This document shows positions 2,463 through 10,458 of a DNA stretch of 10,694 nt, piece after piece. The notes below the pieces were generated by a model. The model was not told the DNA's origin. It searched no databases and saw only the letters and a program-made list of their open reading frames with translations. This DNA comes from Candidatus Desantisiibacteriota bacterium (GTDB lineage Bacteria; JACRDZ01). The stretch is from positions 1-10,694 of the forward strand of contig JACQWU010000340.1 in NCBI GenBank assembly GCA_016209155.1. The letters run 5' to 3'. Position 1 is the first letter of the stretch, and every line of letters starts with the position of its first letter. Both the position numbers and the translations under genes were made by a program.

Positions 2463-2493
2463 ATTATAGGAACCCGTATAATTAATATTGCAA
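2463..2493 (-). promoter_or_regulatory. Weak candidate promoter of the transporter gene, possibly leaderless
   Basis: On the minus strand a perfect TATAAT (plus-strand 2463-2468) lies six bases before the transporter ATG. A TTGCAA (2488-2493) lies 19 bp further upstream, a longer gap than ideal. If used, transcription would start at or next to the ATG, giving a leaderless mRNA, which would fit the absence of any Shine-Dalgarno sequence. The region is AT-rich, so a chance match is possible. Confidence 0.27.
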
Positions 2494-2547
2494 ATCATCG
2501 GCTATTTCAAATACCTGAAGTTATGTGTGATTATGCATAATTTGTAC

Positions 2548-2582
2548 CTAAAAGCCTTCCGCCTTCAGTCTATATACCTGAA
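2548..2582 (-). repeat. Dispersed intergenic repeat, copy 1 (inverted relative to copy 2)
   Basis: Read on the minus strand, this 35-bp segment matches 7652-7686 at 31 of 35 positions. Both begin TTCAGGT, share AGACTGAAGG and end GGAAGGCTTTTAG. The similarity continues more weakly for about 35 bp beyond the TTTTAG end, including a short central palindrome and a final CTTCAG, so the full unit may be about 70-90 bp. The far arm is degenerate in this copy, so no strong hairpin forms. Both copies lie strictly between genes. I do not recognise the family. Confidence 0.75.
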
Positions 2583-2656
2583 TAGCAATAGATTTTAACC
2601 GAATTATTTGCAGAATTCCAGTTTTATCTTTTTAAGGTGATGTAAAAATATAATAG

Positions 2657-2685
2657 TTGCAAAAAGTAATTATTGGAGTGATAAT
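2657..2685 (+). promoter_or_regulatory. Candidate sigma70-type promoter of the protease gene
   Basis: TTGCAA (2657-2662) and GATAAT (2680-2685) are separated by an ideal 17 bp, matching consensus at 4 of 6 and 5 of 6 positions. Transcription would start near 2692, leaving a leader of just under 100 nt before the protease start. The surrounding sequence is AT-rich, so this is a candidate only. Confidence 0.4.
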
Positions 2686-2771
2686 ATTGTAAGAATGTTT
2701 AAAATGAGGGAAAAGTTCAGGATAATATAGAATTACTGTGTAAAATAGGTCAAAGGTGTAATTTTATGAGA

Positions 2772-2785
2772 AGGAGGGAAGGGGG
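2772..2785 (+). promoter_or_regulatory. Purine-rich ribosome-binding tract of the protease gene
   Basis: AGGAGG (2772-2777) lies 11 nt before ATG 2789, and a second run GGGGG (2781-2785) lies 9 nt before ATG 2795. Either ATG could serve; the two proteins differ only by the first two residues (MLMKK versus MKK). Both starts give a normal signal peptide. Confidence 0.7.
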
Positions 2786-2788
2786 TAT

Positions 2789-5700
2789 ATGTTAATGAAA
2801 AAGCTGTTTATAAGTTTATTTTTAATTGTCATTTTTTTACCCGGATGGGCAGTTTTATTGGCAGGACAGAATAAAGGTTATTTTTATAATAGTGATAAAA
2901 AGGCAGATTCAGCTAAAAGTAAAAATGATAGATTACTTAAAAAAGGCGGAGATTCTAAAGTAAATGGATCCGAGACCGGAGAAATTCTGGTAAAGTTCAA
3001 GCCAAACGCATCAAAGGCAGGAATAGATGCAGCTCATAAAAAAATAAGGGCGCTGGTTAAAACTAAATTTAAGAAAACAGGTATACAGGTAATAAAAATG
3101 CCTGCCGGGATGAAAATTGAAAAGGTAATTGAATATTATAAAAATAATACTGACGTGGAATATGCGGAACCGAATTTCAGAATTAAATTGAAAGCAGTGG
3201 TTATGCCAAATGATCCAAAGTTCAGTGAACAATGGGGATTAAATAACACAGGACAATCCGGCGGAACCGCGGATGCGGATATCGATGCGCCTGATGCGTG
3301 GGGATTATTTAAAGGTGATAGCAGCTTTGTTGTCGGGATGCTTGACAGCGGAATTGATTATACTCATGAAGATTTGAAAAATAATATATGGATAAATCCA
3401 TATGAAATAGCAGGGGATGGAATTGATAATGACGAAAATGGTTATGTGGATGATATCTATGGATTAAATGCAATTAATAATGATGGAAATCTTATGGATG
3501 ATAACGGACATGGAACACATATTGCAGGAATAATCGGCGGGGCGGGAAATAATAATAAAGGGATAGCAGGTGTTTCCTGGAATGTTAAACTCATGGGGTT
3601 AAAATGTTTTGATGAAGACGGATATGGAGATGTGGGAGATGCAATTGAATGTATGGAATATGTTCTGGATTTGAAAAAGAAGGGAATAAATATAAAAGTT
3701 ATCAATAATAGCTGGAGCATTAATGAGTATTCTTTCGGTTTATTTGATCTCGTAAAGAACTTAAGAGATGCGGATATTCTTCTTGTTGCCGCAGCGGGGA
3801 ATGAATCTGCTGATAATGATTTGGTAAAATCATATCCTGCAAATTTTAATCTTGATAATATTATATCTGTAGCCGCAACTGATAAGTATGATACTTTAGC
3901 ATCATTTTCAAATTATGGAATTTATTCAGTAGATTTAGCCGCACCCGGAGTTGATATTATAAGTTCAGCATTAGGCGGAGGATATATACCTCAAGCCGGT
4001 GATATTTTTTTTGATGATATGGAAGGCGGTGAAGAAAACTGGACGCATAGCGGAATAAATGACAGCTGGGTATTAGATAATGAAGCTTATCATAGTATTA
4101 ATTACTCATGGAATGACAGCCCTGCTCAGGATTATTTGAATAATACAGATTCTTATCTTGAATATGGCAGTACTATTGATCTTTCAAATTATGCCGGAAT
4201 AAATTTAGGGCTCGGGTTTTGGGCTAAAATTGATATTGAAGACGGATGGGATTATCTTTATGTAGAAATATCAAAAAATGGCGGCCTGGACTTTGAACAA
4301 TTAGTTTATTTAACAGGAGAAGGTATCGGATGGAAGCTATATTCTTTTAAAATACCTGAAAATTATAAAACGGATAAGTTTTGTTTCCGATTTCATCTTA
4401 TAACTGATGAAGATATAAGGTTTGGCGGTGTTAATATAGATGATGTTGGTATCGGCAGTAGTATGGAATCAAATAATTATATCAGCTATTCAGGTACATC
4501 AATGGCAGCTCCTTATGTATCCGGAACTGCTGCGCTTTTATGGGGGTATAGACCCAATTTAAATTATCTGGATGTTGCAGATATTATTCTTACGAGCGTC
4601 GATCCTGTCCTTAACCTTAAAAATAAAATTCGCACAAAAGGAAGATTGAATGCATATAAGGCTTTACAGCTTGATCCATCCAATATTCCTCCGATTATAA
4701 CCGAGCTTTCTCATAATCACGGCCCGGTAAATATGACAATGAATATTAAGGGCAGAAGATTCGGAGTAAGTTCAGGCGCCGTTAAATTTTTTTCAAATAA
4801 AACTGCATCTATTTCGAGCTGGACAGATACTTTAATTACCTGCACTGTGCCTGAAGGCGCACAGTCAGGGGATATTACTGTTACAACAATAGAAGGAAAA
4901 ACCGCAAGTATATTTTTTAAGGTAGGTGAATTTTTTGATATGCATGCGTTTATTCCTATTCCAGTGTATAGATCAGCAGCAGCATCCCTTAATGGGAATA
5001 TTTATGTTATCGGAGGATACATAAATAAAGATGAGGAATCAGGATATGTGCAAATATATGATCCGGCATATAATATCTGGAAAACCGGAGCAGTAAAGCC
5101 GACTCCTGTTGTTGATGCTTGTGCCGGTATCCTGGATAATAAAATTTATGTTATTGGCGGATATACAGTGTCAATGGATAATGTAGTAAATAAAGTTGAG
5201 ATATATGACCCTTTAACTGATTCCTGGTCAGAGACAACGCCTCTTCCAAAAGAATTATACGCTTCATCCGCAACTATTCTAAATGGTAAAATATATATTA
5301 TTGGAGGATTTGATTCTTTAAATGAAGTTAATTCAGTAATATATCAGTATAATTCCATTAATCAATCATGGAATACAAGCGCAAGTCCTTTAAATTATAC
5401 GCGGGGGTTTCATGGTGCAGGTGTAATTGAGGATAAAATATATGTGTTTGGCGGTATTAATAATAATTCTGTTTTTTTGAATTCTGCGGAAGTTTATAAT
5501 CCATCTACTAATAAATGGACACTCATTGCATCAATGAATTTTACAAGATATGATTTTGGAAATGCAGTCGTTGATGGAAAATTATATGCTTTTGGAGGTA
5601 ATTATATGTCCTCAATGGATCCCCCTTATCTTGATAATCTTGAGGTGTATGACCCTAAAACAAATAAATGGGAAATTAACAAAAAATTACTTAATAAAGC

Positions 5701-7174
5701 CAGGCAGGGAGTGAAGGGAGCGGTAATTAATAGCTATATATTTGCTTTAGGAGGATATGACGGATCAGTATCTGATATATGTGAAAGTCTTAATATCGCA
5801 GGAGAAATTATTCCTTTTGATCCAATTTATATTCTGTCCCTGACAGTAAATCCTGCCAGCGGGTTGATTCCGCTTCCTGTAGAATTTAATGTGACCATGG
5901 CAGGCGGTTCAGGTAATTATAATTATTCATGGGATTATGGTGACGGGACAACTGTAGAAACAGCACAGAATCCAAAACATACATATTTAAAAGCGGGTGG
6001 ATATACTGCTGTTGTTACTATAATAGATAAAAACGATCCGGCCAATTATACAACAGGTGTATTATATGTAAGCGCAACCGATAAAAGATTGATTTCAATC
6101 TCGGTAATGTCTGCAACTCCATCGGTTGGTGCGGCGCCTCAGGAAGTAATATTTAATATAACTCCAACAGGCGGTTCCGGAAATTATGATTATTCATGGG
6201 ATTATGGAGACGGTACAGCTATTGAAACAGCTCAGAATCCAAAACATACATATATGAATGCCGGTATATATATTGCTGAGGTAACGGTAAAAGATAAAGA
6301 AGATCCTTCCATTTCTACAAAAGGGCAATTGCATATATTGATTAAATCTGTAGATGATGATTCACTAAAAGTGTCGCTTGATGCATCCTCTGTTATTGGT
6401 ATTGTACCGCTTCTTACTGAATTTAAGGTTGGAATATCAGGAGGTGCTATGCCTTACAATCTTACATGGAATTTTGGCGACGGGACCACACCAAAAGAAG
6501 TAATTCTGGATACTACTTCATCCAGTATAACACATACATATACTACAGTTGGAGACTATAGTGCAGTTATTACCGTAAAATCAACTGCTTCAGGCGGTAA
6601 ACCGGAAATGACAGTATCAAGCACGGTTGAGATTAAAGTATCTGCCGCAAGTACAGTACAAAGCTTAGATGCAGCTCTTTCAGCATCCCCGAATACAGGT
6701 AAGGAGCCGCTTAATACGGAATTTAGTATTTCTATATCAGGAGGGGTTAAACCTTACACTCTTTCATGGAACTTTGGTGATGGTACCCCGCCTATAGCAG
6801 AAATGAGTCTTGATACAACTTTATTCAGTAAAAAGCATACATACGCATATTCCGGTGAGTATAATGCAGCCTTTACTGTAAAATCACCTGCCGCCCAGAA
6901 TAATCCGGAGATGACAGTAACCAGGACGGTTAAGATTAAAGTATTTTCTGCTGATACGGCAGTAAGCGGTGGTAATGCGGGCAGTAATAAAAAGAAGGGT
7001 TTATGTTTTATAGACACAGCATTTTTAAAAATAAATGCAGGTCAATATTCAGGTAGTCTGAAAAAAATAAGAGATGATTTTCTAATGAAGAATAGTATAG
7101 GGAATATTTTAGTTAATTTATACTATAAAGCTTCACCTTATTTTAGAAAAATTATCTTGACAAAAAAACTATAA
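2789..7174 (+). CDS. Large exported subtilisin-family (S8) protease with kelch, PKD and CFI-box-like domains
   Basis: This 1461-residue Sec-exported protein starts with a signal peptide (about 1-26; no lipobox). An inhibitor-type propeptide follows (about 63-132, ending VEYAEPNFRIKL). The S8 domain spans about 145-626, with Asp186 (LDSGID), His241 (NGHGTH), oxyanion Asn338 (AAAGNES) and Ser571 (SGTSMAAP) all intact, plus an Asp/Asn-rich, probably calcium-binding loop (210-226). A MAM/immune-inhibitor-A-like jelly-roll (about 404-557) is inserted between Asn338 and Ser571. Then come an IPT/TIG domain (about 634-712), six kelch blades (GG pairs from 742 to 989; the strand at 717-726 may close the ring), four PKD domains (about 1014-1388; YSWDYGDGT or WNFGDGT) and a C-terminal segment beginning CFIDTA (1406) that resembles the CFI-box-CTERM region. 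It is likely an active extracellular or surface endopeptidase with adhesive domains. Its substrate is unknown. No terminator separates it from secG. Confidence 0.93.
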   Translation: MLMKKLFISLFLIVIFLPGWAVLLAGQNKGYFYNSDKKADSAKSKNDRLLKKGGDSKVNGSETGEILVKFKPNASKAGIDAAHKKIRALVKTKFKKTGIQVIKMPAGMKIEKVIEYYKNNTDVEYAEPNFRIKLKAVVMPNDPKFSEQWGLNNTGQSGGTADADIDAPDAWGLFKGDSSFVVGMLDSGIDYTHEDLKNNIWINPYEIAGDGIDNDENGYVDDIYGLNAINNDGNLMDDNGHGTHIAGIIGGAGNNNKGIAGVSWNVKLMGLKCFDEDGYGDVGDAIECMEYVLDLKKKGINIKVINNSWSINEYSFGLFDLVKNLRDADILLVAAAGNESADNDLVKSYPANFNLDNIISVAATDKYDTLASFSNYGIYSVDLAAPGVDIISSALGGGYIPQAGDIFFDDMEGGEENWTHSGINDSWVLDNEAYHSINYSWNDSPAQDYLNNTDSYLEYGSTIDLSNYAGINLGLGFWAKIDIEDGWDYLYVEISKNGGLDFEQLVYLTGEGIGWKLYSFKIPENYKTDKFCFRFHLITDEDIRFGGVNIDDVGIGSSMESNNYISYSGTSMAAPYVSGTAALLWGYRPNLNYLDVADIILTSVDPVLNLKNKIRTKGRLNAYKALQLDPSNIPPIITELSHNHGPVNMTMNIKGRRFGVSSGAVKFFSNKTASISSWTDTLITCTVPEGAQSGDITVTTIEGKTASIFFKVGEFFDMHAFIPIPVYRSAAASLNGNIYVIGGYINKDEESGYVQIYDPAYNIWKTGAVKPTPVVDACAGILDNKIYVIGGYTVSMDNVVNKVEIYDPLTDSWSETTPLPKELYASSATILNGKIYIIGGFDSLNEVNSVIYQYNSINQSWNTSASPLNYTRGFHGAGVIEDKIYVFGGINNNSVFLNSAEVYNPSTNKWTLIASMNFTRYDFGNAVVDGKLYAFGGNYMSSMDPPYLDNLEVYDPKTNKWEINKKLLNKARQGVKGAVINSYIFALGGYDGSVSDICESLNIAGEIIPFDPIYILSLTVNPASGLIPLPVEFNVTMAGGSGNYNYSWDYGDGTTVETAQNPKHTYLKAGGYTAVVTIIDKNDPANYTTGVLYVSATDKRLISISVMSATPSVGAAPQEVIFNITPTGGSGNYDYSWDYGDGTAIETAQNPKHTYMNAGIYIAEVTVKDKEDPSISTKGQLHILIKSVDDDSLKVSLDASSVIGIVPLLTEFKVGISGGAMPYNLTWNFGDGTTPKEVILDTTSSSITHTYTTVGDYSAVITVKSTASGGKPEMTVSSTVEIKVSAASTVQSLDAALSASPNTGKEPLNTEFSISISGGVKPYTLSWNFGDGTPPIAEMSLDTTLFSKKHTYAYSGEYNAAFTVKSPAAQNNPEMTVTRTVKIKVFSADTAVSGGNAGSNKKKGLCFIDTAFLKINAGQYSGSLKKIRDDFLMKNSIGNILVNLYYKASPYFRKIILTKKL
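5903..6253 (+). repeat. Intragenic duplication encoding PKD domains 1 and 2
   Basis: The 84-bp segments 5903-5986 and 6170-6253 are 267 bp (89 codons) apart and match at 75 of 84 positions, encoding GGSGNYxYSWDYGDGTxxETAQNPKHTY twice. PKD domains 3 and 4 form a second related pair, offset by 300 bp (starting near 6437 and 6737), with WNFGDGT cores and longer inserts. The four domains thus look like two sub-families expanded by separate duplications. Confidence 0.85.
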
Positions 7175-7184
7175 AAAATATAAT
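7157..7184 (+). promoter_or_regulatory. Consensus sigma70-type promoter for secG inside the protease 3' end
   Basis: A perfect TTGACA (7157-7162) is followed 16 bp later by a perfect TATAAT (7179-7184). The -35 hexamer is made from the Leu-Thr codons of the protease C-terminus (...LTKKL), and the -10 hexamer lies just after its stop codon (7172-7174). Transcription should begin near 7191, about 40 nt upstream of the secG TTG start. This would allow constitutive secG expression independent of the protease. Confidence 0.8.
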
Positions 7185-7216
7185 ACACTGATAAAAAGTT
7201 TAATGCATATTAAAAA

Positions 7217-7232
7217 AGGAGAAAATATCTTG
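7217..7232 (+). promoter_or_regulatory. Ribosome-binding site that places the secG start at TTG 7230
   Basis: AGGAG (7217-7221) sits 8 nt before TTG 7230. The in-frame ATG at 7203 lies upstream of this Shine-Dalgarno sequence, has none of its own, and would be only about a dozen bases from the predicted transcription start. TTG 7230 is therefore preferred. Confidence 0.75.
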
Positions 7233-7649
7233 GTTACTTTTATCACGGTTATTCACGTAATTGTTGCTATATGTTTAGTTTTATTAATTCTCATTCAGAC
7301 TACAAAGAGTGATGCTACAGCTTTTCTGGGAGGCGGTAGTTCTTCCGATATTTTTGGCGGAAAAGGACCATTGAGTTTTATAACAAAAACCACCGCAGTA
7401 TTAGCTATTGTATTTTTTCTTACATCTACTTATCTGGCAATTGCTCAGGATCACAAAAAAAGATCTATTATTCAGAATGTGCAATTTCCGGAACGTCCTG
7501 TTGCTGCTTCCAAATCTGTTCCTGCTTCCAAACCTTTTATCCCTGACAATAAAATAAATGCAACAGAGACTCAACCAACTACTCCGGTTCAAGCTCCGGT
7601 AAAAGCAACGGTTGATAATAATGCAACTGGAAATACGGGGAAGAAATAA
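7230..7649 (+). CDS. secG: SecG, preprotein translocase subunit
   Basis: From TTG 7230 the product is 139 residues. The start is set by AGGAG 8 nt upstream; the ATG at 7203 would add nine residues (MHIKKGENI) with no ribosome site of its own. The family pattern is clear: transmembrane helix 1 (VTFITVIHVIVAICLVLLIL), the conserved IQTTKSD and glycine-rich loop (AFLGGGSSSDIFGGKGP), then helix 2 (TAVLAIVFFLTSTYLAI). SecG is the small membrane subunit of SecYEG that stimulates SecA-driven export. A Pro/Thr/Ala-rich tail of about 50 residues extends beyond the core, longer than in E. coli, and is probably disordered. The gene lies 55 bp after the protease stop with its own consensus promoter, and ends before a probable hairpin terminator. 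No tpiA neighbour, often seen beside secG, is present in this window. Confidence 0.92.
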   Translation: MVTFITVIHVIVAICLVLLILIQTTKSDATAFLGGGSSSDIFGGKGPLSFITKTTAVLAIVFFLTSTYLAIAQDHKKRSIIQNVQFPERPVAASKSVPASKPFIPDNKINATETQPTTPVQAPVKATVDNNATGNTGKK

Positions 7650-7651
7650 AA

Positions 7652-7686
7652 TTCAGGTGGTTAGACTGAAGGTGGAAGGCTTTTAG
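7652..7686 (+). repeat. Dispersed intergenic repeat, copy 2
   Basis: This is the partner of 2548-2582 (31 of 35 identical, opposite orientation). In this copy the element is fully palindromic: its AGACTGAAGG is matched downstream by CCTTCAGTCT (7719-7728). The two copies bracket exactly the protease and secG genes, about 5.1 kb. Confidence 0.75.
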
Positions 7687-7751
7687 TTTTGATTTATGTA
7701 TTACATGATAGCTACTATCCTTCAGTCTTCAGTCTAAACACCTAATTTTTT
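7655..7751. terminator. Long hairpin between convergent genes, probable bidirectional terminator
   Basis: The left arm 7655-7670 pairs with 7728-7743 at 15 of 16 positions (AGGTGGTTAGACTGAA with TTCAGTCTAAACACCT). Because TTCAGTC is tandemly doubled at 7721-7734, a second register is possible in which AGACTGAAGG (7663-7672) pairs perfectly with CCTTCAGTCT (7719-7728). Six T residues (7746-7751) follow on the plus strand, ending secG transcripts. On the minus strand the hairpin is followed by TTTTATTT, which could end the lipoprotein transcript. The loop of about 50 nt is long for a classical terminator. Confidence 0.5.
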
Positions 7752-10458
7752 AATTAAACATTGGAAGGTATTTTTCCCAGTACGGAGTATCTATTTTTAG
7801 AATTTCTTTATTAGTGACTATCCATTTTTGTCCTGTTTTATTTATTTTTATTAACCTTACAGGAGAAGATTCAAGTCCGTTTGAGGAATCATATTTTATG
7901 TCCCAGTTATTATTATAGTATTCTGCAAGACCGCTTGAAGTACCTGCCCAGATATGACTGTCTATCGAAAGTGCAATAGAAGTTACAGGTAAATCCGGTA
8001 TTACCGTGTTTATAAATATATTGAAAGAAGAATCATAAGAAATTTCTCCCATTCCTTTATCCGTGGCAAAATATGTATGAAAAGTATCTGAGGCTGTACT
8101 TATCATTATATCATAAACATTTTGTCCCGGTGTATCGTAGCTGATTTTTTTCCAGGTCCCTGAAGAATTAAGAACACTTATTCCATTATCAGTTCCGCAC
8201 CATATATCTCCGCTTTCTTTATCAAAATCCAGCGAATAAACAATATTCCCGGACAGTCCGCTTGATATATCATAATTGTAAAAAGTATTCTGCGGATCAA
8301 GACGGGAAAGTCCTTTATCTGTTGCTATCCAGAAGGTATCATAAATTATTTCAATATCATATATCTTATTTGATAAAAGTCCGTTATTTACGGTATATTG
8401 ACTCCATGTTGTATCATTTTCCTGCTTAAAGAATCCATTATCTGTTGCCAGGCATGGGGTGTTTGACGAGCTAAATTTTATTTTATTGATTTTTATACCA
8501 TTAATTTGATTGAAAATTTTCCATCTATTATTTTTATATTGCACAAGTCTGTCAGAAAGACCAATCCAGACATTGTTATTGTTATCAAATGCTATGTCGT
8601 TTATAGTATCTTTTCCATGTTCTTTTATCCACTGATAAGTAATCCATTTTTCTTTTTCCCGTGCTGTAAGACCGGAGGATGTGGCAAACCATAATACCCC
8701 GTTTTTGTCCTCCGAAATATTATTTATTTTTTTACCGCCTAAAAAATTGTTAAAAGAAGTATCATAAGCTGCCGCCCCGTCCCATGTGCCTATCCATGTA
8801 GTGTCATTTCCGGTAAAAAAAGAAAATATTGATTTATTTGCTGTTGTACCGGATGCCTCATAGACAAATATATCTCCAGTAGTATCAAACCACGCTCTGC
8901 CATTTCTGGTCCCTGCCCATAGACGATTATCCGGATCGATGTACAAAGCCTGAATATAATTATCCGGAAGACCGTTTGAAGTAGTGTAAATAGTCCATTT
9001 ATCCGCATAATATTTTGCAAGCCCAAGAGGTGTCCCCGCCCATATGATTCCGGTATTTGCCGCCGCAAGAGAAGTAATAATATTAACAGGTGCTGATCCG
9101 GTATTAAATTTTTTCCATGTAATACCATCAAATACGTTTAATCCTCTTTGAGTTCCGGCCCATATTTTTTTATTTACATCTATAGCAACAGCATTAACTT
9201 GATTGTTTGAAAGTCCGCTTGTTGTATCAAAATTTATCCATGTTACACCATCATAATATGATAATCCATTATCAGTTCCGCACCAGATATTATTCTGCGA
9301 AGTAATAAAAATGCACAAAATATTCTTACCTGCAAGTTCTGCCTGAAGCTGCCAGTTTAATCCTGATTTTTTTATAAGTCCGCAGTCTGTGGCTATCCAG
9401 TAATCACCATTATTATCCTGTTTTGAAGCATGAATATTATTTATACTTTTAGCAGGATTCTGTGTGTCAAGAGTTATAATATTAGTTACCTCTCCGTTTT
9501 TTATTTTTAAAGTGCATAAACCTCCGGGTGTGGCAGCCCACAGATTGTCATTTTCATCTGTAAGCAGGCTGTTAATTTTATTGCTTGGAAGTCCTGAGTT
9601 AATATCATACGTAACTCCGCCTTTATTACTGTTAAATCGTGTGATTCCGGCGCGTGTTCCGACCCAGAGATTATTATGAGAATCTGCTTCTAAAGCGTAA
9701 ATCTGGTTATCAGGCAGTAACTTTTTTGAATATGTACTCCAATTTTTACCGTTAAATTTAGCAAGCCCGTTATAAGTCCCAATCCATATATTATTATCTT
9801 TATCCAGAAGCAAGGAAAGTATTGTATTATGAGGGATTTTACTATTGTATTTCGTGTATACTGTCCATTTTTTTCCATCGAATTTATTTAATCCGGAGCC
9901 TGTTCCAATCCATAAATCATTATTATTATCTACAAGAAGACATAAAATTTCAAAGTATGAAAGTCCGTCTTTCACATTATAAGTAGTCCATGATGTCCCG
10001 TCAAATTTGCTCAATCCGCTTTCAGTTCCGCACCATACATTATTATTTTTATCAATGGCTAAAGCATACACATGGTATCCTAAAAGACCGTCTCTGGCTG
10101 TATAATTATTCCATGAATAACCGTCAAATCTGCTTAATCCGTCAAACGTCCCGATCCAGTATACCCCTTTTGAATCAATTGCCAGCGAATATACATAGTT
10201 ATCCAGAAGCCCGTCGAGTATTGTATACATTATTGAATTTGCGGAATCATATTCTATCAATCCTTTGTCAGTTCCCGCGAGGATAACAGAGTTATTCCGG
10301 GCAAAAGTAAAGAAACGGTTACCCTCTAAAATATAGTTGCCCCAGTATGATGTAGAAGTACTTTTGTTACTTATACGCCCGCAGCCTGCTATAATAAAAC
10401 ATAAAAAGAATATCAAACATGAAACTGGAACTGATTTTTTCGTTATATTTTTATTCAT
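7750..10458 (-). CDS. Lipoprotein built of 21 two-component-regulator propeller repeats
   Basis: This 902-residue protein has a lipoprotein signal peptide ending FIIAGC, with lipidated Cys26 followed by Gly. The mature part is essentially all Reg_prop (two-component propeller) blades of about 41 residues, with the core WxGTxxGLxxFDGxxW then (N)xIxxLxxDxxxN. I count 21 cores, from LAGTDKGL (59) through W101, W142, W183 and onward to W837 and W879; a few are degenerate (WIGLSDRL 631, CLATDNGF 669, YFATDKGM 796, WIVTNKEI 879). Twenty-one equals three seven-bladed propellers. In hybrid two-component sensors these propellers form the periplasmic ligand-sensing part. Here no Y_Y_Y domain, transmembrane helix or kinase follows, so function is unknown: perhaps ligand binding or a surface scaffold. 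GGAG 8 nt before the ATG supports the start. It probably shares a transcript with pgpA, 29 bp upstream. Confidence 0.9.
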   Translation of the reverse strand: MNKNITKKSVPVSCLIFFLCFIIAGCGRISNKSTSTSYWGNYILEGNRFFTFARNNSVILAGTDKGLIEYDSANSIMYTILDGLLDNYVYSLAIDSKGVYWIGTFDGLSRFDGYSWNNYTARDGLLGYHVYALAIDKNNNVWCGTESGLSKFDGTSWTTYNVKDGLSYFEILCLLVDNNNDLWIGTGSGLNKFDGKKWTVYTKYNSKIPHNTILSLLLDKDNNIWIGTYNGLAKFNGKNWSTYSKKLLPDNQIYALEADSHNNLWVGTRAGITRFNSNKGGVTYDINSGLPSNKINSLLTDENDNLWAATPGGLCTLKIKNGEVTNIITLDTQNPAKSINNIHASKQDNNGDYWIATDCGLIKKSGLNWQLQAELAGKNILCIFITSQNNIWCGTDNGLSYYDGVTWINFDTTSGLSNNQVNAVAIDVNKKIWAGTQRGLNVFDGITWKKFNTGSAPVNIITSLAAANTGIIWAGTPLGLAKYYADKWTIYTTSNGLPDNYIQALYIDPDNRLWAGTRNGRAWFDTTGDIFVYEASGTTANKSIFSFFTGNDTTWIGTWDGAAAYDTSFNNFLGGKKINNISEDKNGVLWFATSSGLTAREKEKWITYQWIKEHGKDTINDIAFDNNNNVWIGLSDRLVQYKNNRWKIFNQINGIKINKIKFSSSNTPCLATDNGFFKQENDTTWSQYTVNNGLLSNKIYDIEIIYDTFWIATDKGLSRLDPQNTFYNYDISSGLSGNIVYSLDFDKESGDIWCGTDNGISVLNSSGTWKKISYDTPGQNVYDIMISTASDTFHTYFATDKGMGEISYDSSFNIFINTVIPDLPVTSIALSIDSHIWAGTSSGLAEYYNNNWDIKYDSSNGLESSPVRLIKINKTGQKWIVTNKEILKIDTPYWEKYLPMFN
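8182..8202 (-). repeat. Exact 21-bp repeat between propeller blades (second copy 9265-9285)
   Basis: The same 21 bases occur at 8182-8202 and 9265-9285, and 15 bases of a closely similar segment recur at 10021-10035. They encode the WCGT(D/E)(N/S)G cores of blades 18, 9 and 3, the only blades with Cys after the Trp. Conservation at the DNA level suggests fairly recent blade duplication or gene conversion. Confidence 0.7.

What the first reader, a model, noticed from the sequence alone, without database searches (positions are those of the whole stretch)
2548..7686. Inverted copies of an unrecognised intergenic repeat bracket the protease-secG pair
Two 35-bp segments (2548-2582 and 7652-7686) match at 31 of 35 positions in opposite orientation, with weaker similarity extending about 35 bp further. 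They lie in the only two intergenic regions flanking protease plus secG. This could be a MITE or REP-like palindromic family, or a substrate for inversion of the 5.1-kb block. The arms carry the heptamer TTCAGTC and its complement GACTGAA.
Basis: partly seen in the sequence, partly recalled or inferred. Interest (0 to 1): 0.6.

Follow-up and report, generated by a model that had tools for sequence, protein, structure and literature searches.

The report
Hairpin remnants of a jumping element
The two matching DNA stretches are old copies of a small mobile element that sits at about 64 places in this genome, and intact relatives in other bacterial phyla carry one conserved gene of a kind otherwise known from insertions in ribosomal RNA, so a protein of unknown function turns out to ride on a jumping element.

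Summary
The repeat is real: 31 of 35 positions match in opposite orientation, and it is a dispersed family, not a local duplication. A covariance-model search finds about 64 sites in this 3.08-Mb MAG (counted). The copy at 7648-7748 is a complete ~100-bp hairpin. The copy at 2504-2586 (- strand) has a good left arm but then runs into a decayed reading frame.

Relatives in other phyla explain the anatomy. Intact elements end in GTAACTACTCAGG...CCTGAGTAGTTAC and are flanked by 8-bp target-site duplications (34 of 49 match at 7 or 8 of 8 positions; 0.9 expected). The fullest copies (~450 bp) carry one gene, a 23S-rRNA-intervening-sequence four-helix-bundle protein (PF05635), under purifying selection (dN/dS 0.05-0.15). 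Short copies are internal deletions; the window copy at 2504-2586 still holds a recognisable piece of the gene's 5' end.

Ends and duplication length fit IS66-family, ISBst12-group transposition. Classification: MITE-like, non-autonomous, probably mobilised in trans by an IS66-type transposase. Inversion of the 5.1-kb block is unsupported. Unexplained: in this genome, copies between co-directional genes point with transcription 21:1.

The parts
7648..7748 (+). Complete short copy (MITE) filling the gap between secG and the propeller gene; + is the orientation in which the lost gene would read
   Evidence: 92.0 bits over the whole model; palindrome and fold
7652..7686 (+).
   Evidence: alignment of 28 copies
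7696..7698 (+). ATG 9 nt after TTTTAG, at the place where the intact element's gene starts; the frame here is only 13 codons
7711..7748 (+). Right arm of the complete copy, ending in a decayed terminal repeat (CACCTAATTTT)
2504..2586 (-). Second, decayed copy on the - strand (weak whole-model match; right arm poor)
   Evidence: 41.7 bits
2548..2583 (-).
   Evidence: E 9.8e-7, 31/35 identities
2472..2538 (-). Broken 5' end of the four-helix-bundle (PF05635-type) gene; reads MHNHT*LQVFEIADD against MRDHTKLRAFELADE, with in-frame stops
   Evidence: DNA alignment outside the arm; 0 of 2000 shuffles and 1 of 4000 random genome windows reach its score
2789..7174 (+). Neighbour, not part of the element: subtilase (S8) with Kelch and PKD domains
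7203..7649 (+). Neighbour: secG; its stop codon TAA (7647-7649) lies at the edge of the element

Best explanation
Both segments are remnants of one family of non-autonomous DNA transposons. The intact form is ~450 bp: outer ends GTAACTACTCAGG...CCTGAGTAGTTAC, two ~35-bp imperfect inverted arms, and between them a single gene for a PF05635 four-helix-bundle protein. Internal deletion of that gene leaves a ~85-190 bp hairpin (a MITE). A transposase acting in trans recognises the ends and inserts the element with an 8-bp target duplication; the most likely enzyme is an IS66-family, ISBst12-type TnpC. In the window's lineage the burst is old: the outermost bases have mostly decayed and about 64 hairpins remain, nearly all between genes. 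7648-7748 is a deleted short copy; 2504-2586 (-) is a left-end fragment of a gene-bearing copy. They face each other because two separate insertions happened to do so. Shown: family, dispersal, arms, 8-bp duplication and gene in intact relatives, gene remnant in the window. Inferred: the IS66-type enzyme as mobiliser, and the loss of activity here.
For: About 64 sites in the genome. 34 of 49 end-to-end elements in four MAGs have 8-bp flanking duplications at 7 or 8 of 8 positions, 19 exact, 0.9 expected, none exact at lengths 7, 9 or 10 (first seen). Complete PF05635 gene between the ends in three genomes, 446-453 bp (Pfam E 8e-34). Partly deleted genes in the same genomes. Gene remnant in the window and an ATG at the same offset in many own copies. 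ISDge4, an ISBst12-group IS66 element caught transposing, has ends GTGACTACTCAGCA/GTAACTGCTCAGCA and an 8-bp repeat (PMC12898284). IS66 transposase genes next to a GTAACTATTCAGC end in this genome (C12) and in a carrier genome.
Against: No copy contains a transposase, and no complete IS66 element with matching ends on both sides was recovered (one end each, at contig breaks). End similarity between the IS66 genes and the elements stops after ~12 bases. In the window's own genome no clear 8-bp duplications were shown; they rest on relatives in other phyla. The strong orientation bias in this genome (21:1) is not predicted by simple insertion.
Confidence: 0.85

Rival explanations
1. The copies kept in this lineage work as RNA: an intercistronic hairpin cut by RNase III, or a ready-made translation start that tunes the downstream gene (a domesticated MITE). 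This can be true on top of the best explanation.
For: Orientation with transcription 21:1 or 30:3 in this genome. Two half-copies coincide with gene starts: a hydrolase whose first ~20 codons are the lost gene's, and a YacP-type gene. Sense fold slightly stronger than antisense, mean 2.2 kcal/mol, p 0.03. RNase III cutting of MITE-bearing mRNA is known for Correia elements (PMC10969869).
Against: The arms of 33 copies pair no better with their own partner than with partners of other copies. No Rfam family. In younger copies elsewhere the orientation bias is weaker, 10:5 or 16:4 depending on detection.
Confidence: 0.25
2. The four-helix-bundle protein itself, not an IS66 transposase, moves the element, alone or with another host factor.
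For: It is the only gene of intact copies and is under strong purifying selection across phyla (dN/dS 0.05-0.15). Only six of thirteen searched genomes have a recognisable IS66 transposase.
Against: PF05635 proteins have no known catalytic activity. Fixed 8-bp duplications and GTAA ends are what IS66 transposases leave. A second family with the same ends and 8-bp duplications has no such gene (L227). MAGs are incomplete, so absence of a transposase is weak evidence.
Confidence: 0.08
3. REP/REPIN elements moved by a RAYT (Y1) transposase.
For: Palindromic, intergenic, many copies; six Y1_Tnp matches in the genome.
Against: No convincing copy at any of the six Y1 loci; unit two to four times longer than a REP; 8-bp duplications in relatives, which single-strand Y1 transposition does not make (own knowledge).
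Confidence: 0.03
4. The pair is a substrate for inversion of the 5.1-kb protease-secG block.
For: Opposite orientation, 51 nt at 80%.
Against: Two of about 64 copies; short and diverged for homologous recombination; no recombinase in the window; no reads or close relatives to test.
Confidence: 0.03

Closest known systems
IS66 family, ISBst12 group (ISDge4 of Deinococcus geothermalis, PMC12898284)
   Same: Terminal sequence GTAACTRCTCAGC-like and 8-bp target duplication
   Different: ISDge4 encodes its transposase; these elements do not, and carry a PF05635 gene or nothing
Bacterial MITEs such as MITECca01 (PMC9769881)
   Same: Short, non-autonomous, terminal inverted repeats, many intergenic copies, derived from a longer element by internal deletion
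   Different: The longer form is not a transposase-bearing IS but a cassette with a four-helix-bundle gene; copies spread over several phyla
23S rRNA intervening sequences with an S23p gene (Coxiella burnetii, PMC4990558)
   Same: ~430-450 nt hairpin-bordered element with a PF05635-family gene in the loop
   Different: Sits between protein genes, not in rRNA; defined 8-bp duplications and GTAA ends; RNase III excision not tested
IS66 elements with passenger genes (tIS66, e.g. ISPa75 with fosZ, PMC12888890)
   Same: IS66-type ends starting GTAA with a passenger gene inside
   Different: Here no transposase is left; this resembles a mobile insertion cassette (term from own knowledge)

Membership tests
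MITE | Short (<~300 bp), no transposase, many dispersed copies | tested here: met
   ~85-125 bp, about 64 sites
MITE | Terminal inverted repeats | tested here: met
MITE | Target-site duplication of fixed length | tested here: met
   8 bp in relatives; not shown for the window's own decayed copies
MITE | Derived from a longer element by internal deletion | tested here: met
IS66 family, ISBst12 group (as mobiliser) | Ends starting GTAA, matching an ISBst12-group element | tested here: met
   GTAACTACTCAGG against ISDge4 GTAACTGCTCAGC
IS66 family, ISBst12 group (as mobiliser) | 8-bp target duplication | tested here: met
IS66 family, ISBst12 group (as mobiliser) | Encodes a single IS66-type transposase | tested here: not met
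   No copy has one; so the elements are not IS66 insertion sequences, only candidates for movement by one. IS66 genes with one matching end are present in trans
REP/RAYT | Copies flanking a RAYT (Y1) transposase gene | tested here: not met
   six Y1 loci, no convincing copy
rRNA intervening sequence (IVS) | Located in 16S or 23S rRNA | tested here: not met
   no rRNA at the window or at 15 PF05635 loci
rRNA intervening sequence (IVS) | Hairpin-bordered element with an S23p/PF05635 gene | tested here: met
   L096, L319, L326; 15-bp closing helix in the fold of L096
rRNA intervening sequence (IVS) | Excised from RNA by RNase III | not testable with these tools
   needs RNA
Structured regulatory RNA | Base-pair covariation or known Rfam family | tested here: not met
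   no covariation in 33 copies; no Rfam match

The most novel reading that the evidence does not exclude
Intervening sequences in ribosomal RNA and these intergenic elements are one class of mobile element: a hairpin with IS66-type ends that carries a four-helix-bundle gene which the element needs, so the puzzling S23/IVS protein is a mobility or tolerance factor of a transposon, and rRNA is one of its landing sites.
Probability: 0.15. Interest if true: 0.8.

Novelty: new variant of a known kind. Interest (0 to 1): 0.55.

Why it matters
The S23/IVS four-helix-bundle proteins have solved structures but no known function. Finding one clade of them inside a mobile element with defined ends, 8-bp target duplications and strong purifying selection across phyla makes a role for that family testable. 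It also explains a widespread, unannotated intergenic hairpin in environmental genomes, and offers cases in which element copies became gene starts or operon spacers.

Tried and rejected
REP/RAYT: Y1 transposase loci searched, no convincing copy there. RNA function by covariation: no signal; a first RNAalifold consensus fell into a wrong register because GACTGAAGG and GGAAGG recur within an arm, so the register was set by hand. Rfam: none. Nearest relatives: no convincing copies in the three same-phylum genomes by DNA or model (the model search had no positive control among them). Viral contigs: none with the arm pattern. rRNA setting of other PF05635 genes in carrier genomes: none. A complete IS66 element with the same ends: not found; the clean 1.8-kb IS66 of G051 ends GTAACTTCTCACG. 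A nested hairpin inside the gene in L089/L137/L149 was first taken as an insertion with an empty site in L096, but it replaces rather than interrupts ~40 bp, so it was not used as proof of transposition. Literature: no relevant paper in the open-access library holds the arm or end sequences, and none was found on IS66 MITEs with four-helix-bundle genes.

Full report
What was checked. A search of the window's genome (3.08 Mb, 352 contigs, 79% complete) with 7646-7748 gave 58 matches. A profile built from 17 copies found 53 in 484 kb of chosen contigs, and a covariance model found 106 hits over the whole genome, which collapse to 64 sites on 48 contigs.

Anatomy. Canonical copies are ~85-125 bp: ATTCAGGTGnATAGACTGAAGGTGGAAGGCTTTTAGGTACAAATCATG, a variable centre, then CTAATATCCTTCAGYCTTCAGYCTAAATACCTGAAT. 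The arms are imperfect inverted copies, so each element is a hairpin. The window holds one complete copy, 7648-7748, which fills the gap between the convergent secG and propeller genes, and one decayed copy, 2504-2586 on the - strand, with a good left arm only.

What it comes from. A pattern for the left arm hits more than 100 contigs of genomes labelled as Desulfobacterota/Deltaproteobacteria, Nitrospirae, Nitrospinota, Methylomirabilis, Spartobacteria, Dehalococcoidia and others, and no viral contig. In several of these the arm runs into GGACAAATC-ATG-CGC-GAT-CAC..., the start of a 118-residue protein that Pfam names 23S_rRNA_IVP, PF05635, E 8e-34; the nearest solved structure is XCC0516, 2gsc. 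In L325 (the same locus as L096), L319 and L326, from three different genomes, the complete gene lies between the ends, 446-453 bp in all. Within single genomes one finds complete copies and copies in which part of the gene is deleted while its start or its last codons remain. The element-borne proteins form one tight clade, apart from other PF05635 proteins in the same genomes. They are 78-96% identical between genomes with dN/dS 0.05-0.15, so the protein is under selection.

The window copies fit this origin. Beyond the arm, 2472-2538 on the - strand aligns to the 5' end of that gene (0 of 2000 shuffles and 1 of 4000 random genome windows score as high). It reads MHNHT*LQVFEIADD against MRDHTKLRAFELADE, with in-frame stops, so the gene is broken. 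In both window copies an ATG sits 9 nt after TTTTAG, where the intact gene starts.

How it moved. In intact relatives the outer ends are GTAACTACTCAGG...CCTGAGTAGTTAC. Of 49 end-to-end elements in four MAGs, 34 are flanked by 8-bp sequences matching at 7 or 8 positions (19 exactly; 0.9 expected from re-paired flanks), and exact duplications occur at length 8 but not at 7, 9 or 10. Published IS66 ends start with GTAA (PMC12888890). ISDge4, an ISBst12-group IS66 element seen to transpose, has ends GTGACTACTCAGCA and GTAACTGCTCAGCA and an 8-bp repeat (PMC12898284). IS66 transposase genes next to a GTAACTATTCAGC end were found in this genome and in a carrier genome. Movement in trans by such a transposase is the best reading, but it is inferred: no copy contains a transposase, and no full IS66 element with both ends matching was recovered.

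What is odd. In the window's genome, copies between co-directional genes point with transcription 21 to 1 when both neighbours lie within 250 bp (p 1e-5), or 30 to 3 in a looser set. In the apparently younger copies of other genomes the figures are 10:5 or 16:4 (another way of detection), so it is open whether the bias arises at insertion or builds up through loss of antisense copies or use of sense copies. Two half-copies show how sense copies may be used: in C20 a hydrolase gene starts with the first ~20 codons of the lost gene, and in C131 a YacP-type gene starts at the element's ATG position. Against selection for RNA structure, the arms of 33 copies pair no better with their own partner than with those of other copies.

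Judgement. The finding is real, and its MITE reading is right. The REP reading and the 5.1-kb inversion are not supported. The new part is the link between a non-autonomous element with IS66-type ends and a clade of intervening-sequence four-helix-bundle proteins. I found no description of it in the open-access library, which is not proof of novelty because ISfinder and subscription papers could not be searched. Carrier taxonomy rests on MAG bins; dozens of copies per bin (55 ends in G042, 137 in G045) make stray contamination an unlikely explanation for those bins, less so for genomes with one hit.

Noticed in passing
L030:3672-4580 (-), own genome C20: An alpha/beta hydrolase (PF12146) whose N-terminus, MRDNTKPWTFEITDELAILM, is the start of the element's lost four-helix-bundle gene: a host gene appears to have captured the element's start codon.
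   Followed up: partly
L053:9899-9945, own genome C131: A left half-element directly before a YacP-type gene (PF05991) that starts exactly at the element's ATG position.
   Followed up: partly
G048 (JAQYVT SF_100_bin76), 50 PF05635 matches: Many element-borne four-helix-bundle genes are broken at the same internal place by a second palindrome (...GTTAGATCACTTCAGCC...), as in L089, L137, L149; it replaces ~40 bp.
   Followed up: partly
L227:960-1144, 3722-3906, 4721-4905 (G045, JASEGY Yes70-08): A second MITE family of 185 bp with ends GTAACTACTCAGC, without the gene, again with 8-bp duplications; G045 has 137 such ends.
   Followed up: partly
own genome and carriers: Orientation of copies relative to co-directional neighbours, 21:1 here, weaker elsewhere; cause unknown.
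   Followed up: partly
own genome, L071-L076: Six Y1_Tnp (RAYT/IS200-type) matches unrelated to this repeat.
   Followed up: no
window 2789-7174 and 7750-10458: A 1461-residue subtilase with Kelch and four PKD domains and a 902-residue two-component-regulator-propeller protein flank secG.
   Followed up: no
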